Positions 2,072-59,192 of a stretch of DNA of 64,000 nucleotides are shown here, one piece after another (the stretch's first letter is position 1; every line of letters starts with the position of its first letter). The stretch comes from Nannobrachium achirus (Eukaryota; Chordata; Actinopteri; Myctophiformes; Myctophidae). The stretch covers positions 7,548,822 through 7,612,821 of the forward strand of contig OY997655.1 in the NCBI GenBank assembly GCA_963921795.1, in the 5' to 3' direction. Under the pieces are notes generated by a model. That model saw only the letters and a program-made list of their open reading frames with translations. It made no database searches and was not told the DNA's origin. A program made the translations under genes and the position numbers.

Positions 2072-5000
2072 GTGAGTGTGTGTGAGCTGAGTGTGTGTGT
2101 GTGTGTGTGTGTGTGTGTGTGTGTGTGTGTGTGTGTGTGTGTGTGTGTGTGTGTGTGTGTGTGTGTGTGTGTGTGTGTGCGTGCGTGCGTGCGTGTCGTG
2201 ATGCCATCTCTCACAGGTTTGGGTAAAACGTTGATGCCCCCCGTTACTGCAGAAACACTTCTTTGAGAAATAATAACTCTATAACTCTGTGTGATTGTAT
2301 CATTTGTATTCCGTAAATAATGACGTTATTCTGCCAAAGTAATTGTTGTGTATTGTACATCACAGGCTGATTGTGTGTATATTTCGTACTGTAGGTGTAT
2401 GTTAACAGTATCATTATTTGCACAATTACATTAGATAAGGGCTGCTAGGTGTAGTTCATAATAATGTGGAGGCTACTTTAGTTCAGTGTTGTTTAAGTGT
2501 GTCTGCATCGTGAGCCTGGGGGGCGTGAACGATTTACCCAAACCTGTGATAGATTCCTTCTCACATGCGTGCACCGTGCGTGTGTGTGCAGTGCACGCGT
2601 TCAAACAGTTGTTGGTGAACTGCATTGTTGTGCACAAGCTATTGCGAGTAGCTGAGACATGAAGCACAGCAACATTTGATCGTTCACGGACGAATAGTTG
2701 TTGTTTTATTTGTCTGATCATAAATCTCACTCTGAATGTGGTTGCACTTTCAGGAGGACAGCAGTATTGCACCTCTATCCTTGTTTATTTGTCTGTTTTC
2801 ACTTACAAGACATTTTTAAATTGGTTACAAAGATTCAAAAAACGTGAAGGAGAATGCCTAAAACCCCCCCAGGGACTTGAGAAGTGGCATTCTCCGGGAA
2901 TATTTGTACATACAAAATGACATCAGAGTAGAAGGTATCTATCCTTTACTAATAATATAATGACATTAATATACATGTCATATCCTCCCTGCAGACTGAG
3001 GTGTTTGTGGAGGCCAACCATCCCAGCCAGGTGTTGGAGGGTCTCAACAGACAGCGTCTCAACAACACCCTGTGTGATGTGACTCTGTGCTGTGAGGGAC
3101 AGCAGTTCCCCTGCCATCGTTCTGTTCTGGCCTCCTTCAGCTCCTACTTTGAGGTAAATACATGAATTGCATTGTTATGGCGCTTATCCAAGAGCTCAAA
3201 GCGCTTTACAGTGTTTCATTCATTCATTCATTCATTGAGAGGTGAGGCGGCCAATGACCTCAATTCCCACATTCACACACCAATGGTGGCAACTGGCAGG
3301 CTAACACCACTGGAGGCAATGTGAGGTTCAGTGTCTTGCCCAAGGACACTTCGATGTGTGGACAGTAGGAAGAGCCGGGATTCGAACCGCCGACCCATGT
3401 ATCATTGCTCTACCTCCTGAGCCACAGCCGGCCCAAACATACACACATTTATTGATCTGCTGTTTTTACGATACCAATATCTTCTTATAAAGCGAATTAC
3501 ATTATCAGTTCTGCCCCTTGGCTTTCACCGCAACCAAATATCTTAAACCATGAACACCCCAAGCTAGGGATGAGACCATATGAACATTTCATGTCATGAT
3601 TATTGTGACCAAAGAAGTTTCGCGATAATAGAATTATCCCCAACTTCCCTTATCCTGGGGTGGAACATTTGCCAAAAAAATAGCAGATAACGCGACCCGT
3701 TGTGAGCTTGTAGTTCGGCTATTTTTTTGACAAATAGATTTGGTAGAGAGTAAAAATACAGTATCAAGTACATTATTTCCAGATCCCTTTTATCAATTAA
3801 AGAGGGTTTAACTGGTAGTTCTGCAAATAAAAGGTGAATTGATCCCAGTGCATGACTGAGGATAATTCCACGATAAATTTTAAATAGTACAATACGATTA
3901 TTGTGAGTGTTTTTTATCACGATAAATGATAATGGTGATTATCATCCCAACCCTGCTCCGAGCCCCAACCATTCACCTTTCCAACCTCCACAGGCCATGT
4001 TTACCTCTGGCATGAAGGAGTCTACAGATGACAGGGTGATCATGAGTGGAGTGGAAGCTCAGATGTTGAGACTGCTGGTGGACTTTGCCTACACTTACAG
4101 GGTGTCCATCTCCCCGGATAATGTGCAGGTAATGTAGTATCATCAGGCATTGACAATAAGGCTTGCCCACCTGCCCCCGGCAGGTAAATAAAACTAACGG
4201 GCAGGTGGAGTTTGCTTGGCAAGTGACTATGAGACCTTAGTGTCAACCCCTGATCATCATCAAACATTATTCATTGTCTCCATGTTTGTCCTACAAAAAA
4301 TTGCAGATCTACAAGCTCACAGCTCGGCTGCGAGCTTGTAGATCTCCTATTTTTGAAAGATATTTGCAAGTCTTTGAATTTATCTTTCAAATCTCTGCGT
4401 CTGGGGGTCCCTGGAACAACATATATTTGGATGGGGCCAAAGGCCAAATACTGTACATGTCATTTTGGGGGTCCTTGACTTGAAAGAGTTTGAGAACCAC
4501 TAATTTAGAAAAAGGATTTAGAAGATAGCATATCTACAAGCTGTGAGCTTGTATATCTGCACATATTTTTTATAGTTAAAGCATAAAATAATGGTTAAAA
4601 TAATAATGCTCTAAATGAACACATGTTGTTCATGTGCTTCTGCTCCAGCCCCTGCTAGCAGCCTCAGACCTGTTGGATGTCAGCGCTGTGAGAGAGGCCT
4701 GCTCTGACTACATGGAGCGTCACATGGACGTCAACAACTGTGTGGAGATGTTCTGCTGTGCAGACGACCACTCCTGTGAAATGCTGGAGGAACAGAGCAT
4801 GGCGTACATTCTGGAGCACTTCACTGAGCTCTACCAACAGGTTAGTGACTGAGGGATCGTACACTAACCGTGTTTGTTGTTGTTGTTGTTGTTGTTGTTG
4901 TTTGTCTTTTGGCTTTTTCCTCCCATTACTTTACAGCAGGGGTCTTCAACAGGGGGTCCGCGGCCCCTAGGGGGTCCTCAGAGATACTACAGGGGGGCCT

Positions 5001-58781: not shown

Positions 58782-59192
58782 CATACATGGGCAACTGGCG
58801 GCCCGGGGGCCACATGTGGCCCCCACCTTCACTTAATGCGGCCCGCAGGTTGATATCAGAATACTGATATTATTGATTTCAGCTGTGTCCTACGTCTTTG
58901 TATTTAAGTTCATAAAGTTAACAATCAAAAATGTTACATTTCCGTTTCCGGATTCCAATAAAAAAAGAAAAAGAAAAAAATCTGGATTCCAATTCAAAAG
59001 AAGCAAAAATAGCCGATATACACGCTCAAAACGCGTCGCTCTGCGATGCGTTTTGAGCTTGTAGATCTGCTTTTTTTTTTGTTCTTTTGTATACAATACT
59101 AGAATGACAAAGTAGTACGTAGCAATATGCATTGTGGCCCTCTGGAGTGGAAATATAGCGGCCCTCTCCATCATTAAATTTGCCCACCCCTG
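58782..59192. mobile_element. hAT-like MITE, same family as 57381, inverted
   Basis: CATACATGGGCAACTGGCGG at the left and TTGCCCACCCCTG at the right, with a perfect duplication GTCTAGGG (58774-58781, 59193-59200). Confidence 0.9.
58995..59089. repeat. Hairpin module, CAAAAC variant
   Basis: CAAAAGAAGCAAAAATAGCC outer arm; CTCAAAACGCGTCGC and GATGCGTTTTGAG inside. The right outer arm has decayed into a T-run. Confidence 0.85.

What the first reader, a model, noticed from the sequence alone, without database searches (positions are those of the whole stretch)
4295..59089. One hairpin module sits inside at least six unrelated MITE families
A stem of about 60-95 bp (AATAGC-AGATCTACAAGCTCACAACGC, loop, complement, GCTATT) occurs around 30 times, about once per 2 kb. 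Clear hosts are hAT-like families with CAGGGGTCTTCAAC, TAGGGCTGTCAC, CAGTGGTTCC, CAGTGGTTCTCAACC and CAGGGGTGGGCAA ends, and a TA-target (Tc1/mariner-like) family with TCGTCGTTGTCGGG ends. Their termini and target duplications differ, so common descent of the whole elements is unlikely. Either the hairpin is itself a mobile or copying unit that homes into MITE centres, or it gives MITEs an amplification advantage and is repeatedly captured. I know no described fish element with this behaviour.
Basis: partly seen in the sequence, partly recalled or inferred. Interest (0 to 1): 0.9.

Follow-up and report, generated by a model that had tools for sequence, protein, structure and literature searches.

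The report
Shared DNA hairpin inside many MITEs
One roughly 85-base DNA hairpin occurs hundreds of thousands of times in this genome inside many different families of small jumping elements, and its shape has been preserved in the founders of those families, which suggests that it helps such elements multiply.

Summary
A profile of the hairpin finds 36 copies in the window and 81 in 200 kb of other stretches of the same genome. Genome-wide, 395,884 arms match at ≤2 mismatches; the reversed control gives 1. TIRs with 8-bp target duplications around hairpins (21 of 130, against 0-1 in controls) show about a dozen hAT end types, so the hosts are not one element. In 264 kb, 15 of 21 strictly defined hAT-like elements contain it.

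How it gets in is partly shown. A TA-inserting unit ('A') carries the hairpin into hAT MITEs. In host X the unfilled TA site matches 1,233 times, the filled junction 6,994 times; sampled filled copies are less diverged, and a second TA site was filled separately. A naked hairpin moving by itself is not supported.

Inside families the two arms decay independently. Between family consensuses changes are compensated (31 against 18 broken; within families 13 against 263). Hence stem integrity matters in copies that found families, or the stem is re-made at founding. I favour a DNA-level amplification advantage (inferred). Closest known kinds are modular MITEs and the conserved domains shared by SINEs.

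The parts
7305..7695 (.). hAT MITE, family D (TAGGGCTGTCAC ends, TSD ATCACCGT/ATCGCCGT) with hairpin 7399-7482
4937..5702 (.). hAT MITE, family B (CAGGGGTCTTCA ends, TSD CTTTACAG/CTTTACAC) with hairpin 5081-5163
10791..11264 (.). hAT MITE, family B (CAGGGGTCTTCA ends, TSD CTCTATTC/CTCTTTTC) with shortened hairpin 10923-10970
20818..21039 (.). TA-flanked unit A with collapsed hairpin 20935-20963
21417..21840 (.). hAT MITE (CAGGGTTCCCCA ends, TSD GTGTACAG/GTATACAG) carrying unit-A sequence and hairpin 21581-21653
27754..27960 (.). unit A copy (inner part) with hairpin 27836-27919
42045..42557 (.). hAT-like element (CGGGGGTCAGCA/CAGGGGTCGGCA ends, TSD GGCTAAGT) holding unit A (42187-42459) and hairpin 42302-42386
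45793..45876 (.). hairpin of family J (flank ACTAGTG/CACTAC shared with unit A)
53240..53324 (.). hairpin of family J
54878..55140 (.). TA-flanked unit A with intact hairpin 54979-55062
55350..55773 (.). hAT MITE, family C (CAGTGGTTCTCA ends, exact TSD AAGTAGAG) with hairpin 55455-55527
57494..57569 (.). hairpin of family G (a CAGGGGTGGGCAA end lies at 57381)
58998..59077 (.). hairpin of family G
3684..60162 (.). range of hairpin copies and remnants in the window (38 merged hits at E<1 with the first profile)

Best explanation
The hairpin is a shared internal module of non-autonomous DNA transposons. It enters new MITE families as part of larger units: shown for unit A, which inserts at TA inside a hAT MITE; indicated for family I; and possibly by junctions within hairpins (one chimera seen). 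The composite is then amplified by the host MITE's own transposase. Copies whose stem is intact are the ones that found new families, so the stem is kept by selection between elements, not by selection for the organism. Inferred, not shown: the intact palindrome acts at the DNA level, as a hairpin or cruciform in single-stranded DNA during replication or gap repair, and raises the chance that an excised or replicated MITE is copied.
For: Shared module in about a dozen hAT end types with 8-bp duplications: 21 of 130 hairpins against 0-1 in five shuffled pairings. 15 of 21 strict hAT-like elements in 264 kb contain it, reversed-sequence control 0; random placement at today's density would put one in about 18%. 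Families C, D, A: 18, 20 and 17 of 20 sampled copies keep a recognisable hairpin; both C misses and two of three A misses are collapsed remnants or deletions. Unit A in hAT host X: empty TA site 1,233 matches, filled left junction 6,994; host parts of filled copies differ by a median of 6.7% (n=7), of empty ones by 18.2% (n=16); A also sits at a second TA site in 3 of 16 copies (L111, L115, L123). Between 10 family consensuses 17 of 40 pairs changed on both sides, shuffles mean 7.7, 0 of 500 as high. Within families compensation is at chance (A 1 against 1.04 expected, C 1 against 2.49). Compensated to broken: 31:18 between, 13:263 within; counting each compensated pair once, 15:18 against 13:263, P 1.5e-9.
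Against: No experiment and no other genome. The excess of filled over empty X copies is one case and could be luck of the founder. Hairpin-free MITEs exist (L022, L023, L027 and window 11942). The compensated changes could come from re-copying one arm at founding. No empty site was found for the CAGGGACGTGCT host (exact pattern, 0), and only 2 weak matches for the inner TTAA repeat of family B. How families C, D and H first got the hairpin is unknown. Cells in the compensation counts are not independent events, and the family consensuses rest on 2 to 24 copies. C, D, A and X samples were among the first places listed, with exact matches to the search pattern, so they lean to younger copies.
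Confidence: 0.5

Rival explanations
1. Neutral hitchhiking: unit A and kin are simply very abundant, land in MITEs by chance and are carried along when the host MITE amplifies; the hairpin does nothing.
For: Nested insertion with an exact empty site is shown; resident copies decay freely.
Against: Does not predict compensated stems between families nor hairpins in 15 of 21 strict hAT-like elements when about 18% is expected at today's density.
Confidence: 0.25
2. Palindrome re-making: the perfect stem is restored when a family is founded, by fold-back synthesis or template switching between arms, so compensation reflects a copying mechanism and not selection.
For: Double changes between families are almost strictly Watson-Crick (3 G-T cells against 31 compensated); collapsed centres and arm-end deletions show that the hairpin is recombinogenic.
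Against: No excess compensation inside families. In 8 of 10 family consensuses an A lies opposite a G in the middle of the stem, which whole-arm copying would erase; only short-tract copying fits.
Confidence: 0.2
3. RNA-level role: transcribed hairpins give dsRNA or small RNAs, or shield the element from silencing.
For: A stem of about 40 bp could be a Dicer or Drosha substrate (general knowledge).
Against: G-T (G-U) pairs are nearly absent between family consensuses (3 of 49 departures) though they make up 64 of 248 one-sided changes inside families; no Rfam match in the window. No RNA data were available.
Confidence: 0.1
4. The bare hairpin is itself a mobile unit (REPIN-like), moved by an unknown enzyme.
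For: Module ends look alike in unit A and family J (ACTAGTG...CACTAC). One C-like copy, L014:6158-6176, lacks the hairpin cleanly.
Against: Of 28 hairpin-less A copies 27 keep bases of the arm ends; the other (L125) lies at the same site of the CAGGGACGTGCT host as hairpin-bearing A copies, so it is best read as a deletion. All 3 hairpin-less D copies keep arm bases. A target duplication around the bare hairpin was not noticed, but not searched for systematically.
Confidence: 0.05

Closest known systems
SINE highly conserved domains (CORE, V and others); V domain in the MER6 MITE (PMC6887750, abstract read; CORE recalled)
   Same: One conserved internal module shared by otherwise different non-autonomous elements and carried to high copy number by its hosts; the V domain also sits in a mariner-derived MITE.
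   Different: There a SINE domain; here a near-perfect palindrome in DNA transposons, with stem conservation by paired changes. That the SINE domains lack such a stem is recalled.
Modular pearl-family MITEs of bivalves and BIV160/Cg170 satellite repeats (PMC5139131, passages read)
   Same: Internal repeats shared between MITEs and satellites, with a palindrome near the repeat junction in one of them.
   Different: Tandem-repeat cores in one MITE family; not one hairpin in about a dozen hAT end types and a TA family.
Angel elements of zebrafish and the fold-back amplification model (Izsvak et al. 1999, recalled, not read)
   Same: Palindromic MITEs whose inverted structure is kept despite sequence divergence; a model in which folded single strands help copying.
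   Different: There the whole element is the palindrome; here a core shared across families with different ends.
REP/REPIN hairpins with RAYT transposases of bacteria (recalled)
   Same: Very numerous short palindromes dispersed without their own gene.
   Different: Bacterial, intergenic, not inside MITEs; no RAYT-like partner was looked for here.

Membership tests
hAT MITE (host families B, C, D, E, H, I, X) | 8-bp target site duplication | tested here: met
   21 of 130 hairpins lie in TIR+TSD elements against 0-1 in controls; exact in 13 of 20 D copies; host X in 5 of 16, four of them exact
hAT MITE (host families B, C, D, E, H, I, X) | short terminal inverted repeats starting CAG/TAG, short body | tested here: met
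   12-base TIRs with at most 2 mismatches, elements 305-766 bp
hAT MITE (host families B, C, D, E, H, I, X) | autonomous hAT relative with matching ends | not tested
   No transposase search was made
Tc1/mariner-type MITE (unit A) | TA target duplication with inverted ends | tested here: met
   Empty site with a single TA, 1,233 matches; filled junction 6,994; tested in one host only
Tc1/mariner-type MITE (unit A) | DDE transposase relative with the same ends | not tested
   Superfamily assignment rests on TA alone
piggyBac MITE (inner repeat of family B) | TTAA target, single TTAA in the empty site | tested here: inconclusive
   TTAA flanks the repeat, but the empty site has only 2 matches at 2-3 mismatches and the repeat lies at the same place in its host
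RNA gene family / microRNA | match to a described RNA family | tested here: not met
   Rfam gathering threshold: 0 matches in the window
Self-mobile hairpin (REPIN-like) | hairpin-only insertions with an empty counterpart | tested here: inconclusive
   Hairpin-less A and D copies are read as deletions; one clean absence in a C-like copy; exact patterns, two families

The most novel reading that the evidence does not exclude
A DNA hairpin module that works as an interchangeable amplification cassette: any cut-and-paste MITE that acquires it, whatever its transposase superfamily, gains copy number because the folded palindrome promotes its copying during replication or gap repair, so that the hairpin evolves as a parasite of MITEs.
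Probability: 0.3. Interest if true: 0.87.

Novelty: new variant of a known kind. Interest (0 to 1): 0.68.

Why it matters
How MITEs reach tens of thousands of copies is a long-standing question. Here one genome holds many families with different ends that share one stem-loop, empty and filled versions of the same host MITE, and a contrast of compensated between-family against uncompensated within-family changes. That makes the claim 'an internal palindrome drives MITE amplification' directly testable with a single transposon assay.

Tried and rejected
All hosts as deletions of one element: rejected by different ends and target duplications. Inner TTAA repeat of family B as a separate piggyBac insertion: empty site nearly absent (2 weak matches). 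Hairpin-free siblings of C, D, A: nearly only deletion products, one clean absence in a C-like copy left open (L014:6158). Known RNA family: none in the window. Exact arm in IMG/VR viral contigs: none. Arm words in the papers library: none. Literature on a shared MITE hairpin: searches returned 0 papers; searches listed nothing that describes it, judging by titles and abstract starts. Empty site of the CAGGGACGTGCT host: exact pattern, 0. A first family sorting for the compensation test was too loose (A n=56) and was replaced; one script timed out. A conserved A-G mismatch as a structural requirement: in a loose count of single copies about half carry it (21 of 40), so no function is claimed. 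Copy-number comparison of hairpin-bearing and hairpin-free families is only suggestive: C 16,936 and D 9,459 against 238 for the L022 type; in local data a median of 6 hits per end (range 1-16, 30 ends) against 2 (1-6, 10 ends).

Full report
WHAT IS THERE. The window is C18:7548822-7612821 of an unnamed 1.66-Gb genome. A profile built from six window hairpins finds 31 copies at E<1e-3 in the window, and 36 after refinement, plus 81 in twenty 10-kb stretches taken at round coordinates. The arm alone matches 395,884 times genome-wide at ≤2 mismatches, against 1 for the reversed pattern. With two arms per hairpin this is about 200,000 hairpins or more; the 200-kb sample extrapolates to roughly 670,000 including degraded copies (my arithmetic). 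Six window copies fold as DNA at -31.5 to -52.3 kcal/mol, z -11.5 to -16.2.

HOSTS. Around 130 hairpins I looked for 12-base inverted ends plus 8-bp duplications: 21 have them (in 20 elements), against 0-1 when left and right flanks of different loci are paired. About a dozen end types appear: CAGGGGTCTTCA, TAGGGCTGTCAC, TAGGGATGGGAC, CAGTGGTTCTCA, CAGTGGTTCCCA, CAGGGTTCCCCA, CAGGGACGTGCT, CAGGGGCGTCAC, CAGTGTTGTAAA, CAGTGTTGATTT, CAGGGGTCGGCA and a weaker TAGGGACGTGCA; host X adds CAGGGGTTTTCA. Some may be kin. In 20 further loci chosen by an exact arm, six hairpins show TIRs of these types with 8-bp duplications and one (L073) a weaker pair. A scan of 264 kb that ignores hairpins found 21 strict hAT-like elements; 15 contain the hairpin, and the reversed sequence gave 0. 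Of the six without, L013:3301-3551 is an artefact between two hairpins, and window 19937-20096 has a palindromic duplication and is doubtful. At today's hairpin density about 18% of such elements would hold one by chance.

FIXED WITHIN FAMILIES. The sampled copies were among the first places listed with an exact match to the end pattern. Family C: 16,936 ends; 18 of 20 sampled copies match the profile and the other two are collapsed remnants. Family D: 9,459 ends; 20 of 20, two of them weakly, with exact 8-bp duplications in 13, some of which may be duplicates of one another. Unit A: 41,043 left ends; 17 of 20, two more with deletions inside or across the hairpin, and one (L059) truncated. Genome searches for hairpin-less copies gave 28 exact matches for A and 3 for D. 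The D matches and 27 A matches keep arm bases; the remaining A copy (L125) has none but lies at the same site of the CAGGGACGTGCT host as hairpin-bearing copies, so I read it as a deletion. In 408 flank pairs held locally, 22 lacked a profile hit; they fall on six places, of which five keep arm sequence and one, L014:6158 in a C-like element, lacks the hairpin cleanly. That one is either a hairpin-free sibling or a clean deletion.

HOW IT GETS IN. Unit A (TA-flanked, TIR TCGTCRYTGTCGGG) lies inside several hAT families. For host X the unfilled site matches 1,233 times and the filled left junction 6,994 times, both over 35 bases at ≤3 mismatches; the empty site has a single TA, the filled one TA on both sides. 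Of 16 empty copies fetched (chosen for exact match to the site), 11 have no hairpin, L111, L115 and L123 carry unit A at a second TA about 23 bp downstream, L117 is joined inside a half hairpin to family B, and L118 has a hairpin at its edge. Host parts differ by a median of 6.7% among 7 usable filled copies (13 of 20 A loci were dropped because both junctions or enough flank were not found) and 18.2% among 16 empty ones. Family I has a hairpin-free relative, L023:8181-8512, alike on both flanks at 81-82%, with a 183-bp insert in I. One-sided flanks are shared between some families (judged by eye): B with E, H with I, A with A' and G. Against this, no empty site was found for the CAGGGACGTGCT host, and only two weak matches for the TTAA repeat of family B.

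WHAT KEEPS THE STEM. On ten family consensuses 17 of 40 pairs changed on both sides (shuffles 7.7, none of 500 as high) and 91.9% of cells pair. Inside families one-sided changes are common and compensated ones are at chance. Totals: within 13 compensated, 248 one-sided (64 of them G-T), 15 doubly broken; between 31 compensated, 15 mismatched, 3 G-T, leaving out the two outermost pairs and the A-G position. Counting each compensated pair once, Fisher P is 1.5e-9. The middle block AGC-GAT-TACA hardly varies between families although its within-family rate (5.9%) is not far from that of the rest (7.4 and 9.2%); since the profile was seeded with this block, that may be ascertainment.

MECHANISM. 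Shown: shared module, many hAT hosts, nested TA insertion in one host family at two sites, decay of residents, compensated founders. Inferred: intact stems help founders amplify, most likely as DNA, because G-T pairs are rare between families. Not shown: any amplification effect, how C, D and H acquired the hairpin, and the enzyme for unit A.

NOVELTY. Literature searches (open-access library only, judged by titles and abstract starts) listed no description of it. The nearest kinds are SINE conserved domains (PMC6887750, abstract) and modular bivalve MITEs (PMC5139131, passages); the Angel model is recalled.

Noticed in passing
L002:1458-1641: Hairpin arms amplified head-to-tail into a short array (units of about 40 bases with GTAGATCTAC joints), as if the palindrome slipped during copying.
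   Followed up: no
L013:3163-3670: One hAT MITE (CAGGGGCGTCAC, exact TSD GAGACATG) holds two hairpins in one element.
   Followed up: partly
window 29966-30415: ORF of 149 aa with a stretch that looks like a membrane receptor (my reading, no library searched); it ends shortly before a hairpin at 30505-30566.
   Followed up: no
G000 C6, C12, C15, C16, C18 (places, first 100 of 238): A hAT end of the hairpin-free L022 type (CAGTGGTTCTCAACCCTTTTACACC) recurs at steps of about 8-15 kb in several arrays, as if part of large tandem repeats.
   Followed up: no
L117: Host X joined to family B inside a hairpin half, with a short shared word (TGAGC) near the joint; a possible template switch at the hairpin.
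   Followed up: partly
L014:6158-6176: C-like element whose flanks match hairpin-bearing copies in L027 but which has no hairpin and keeps no arm bases.
   Followed up: partly
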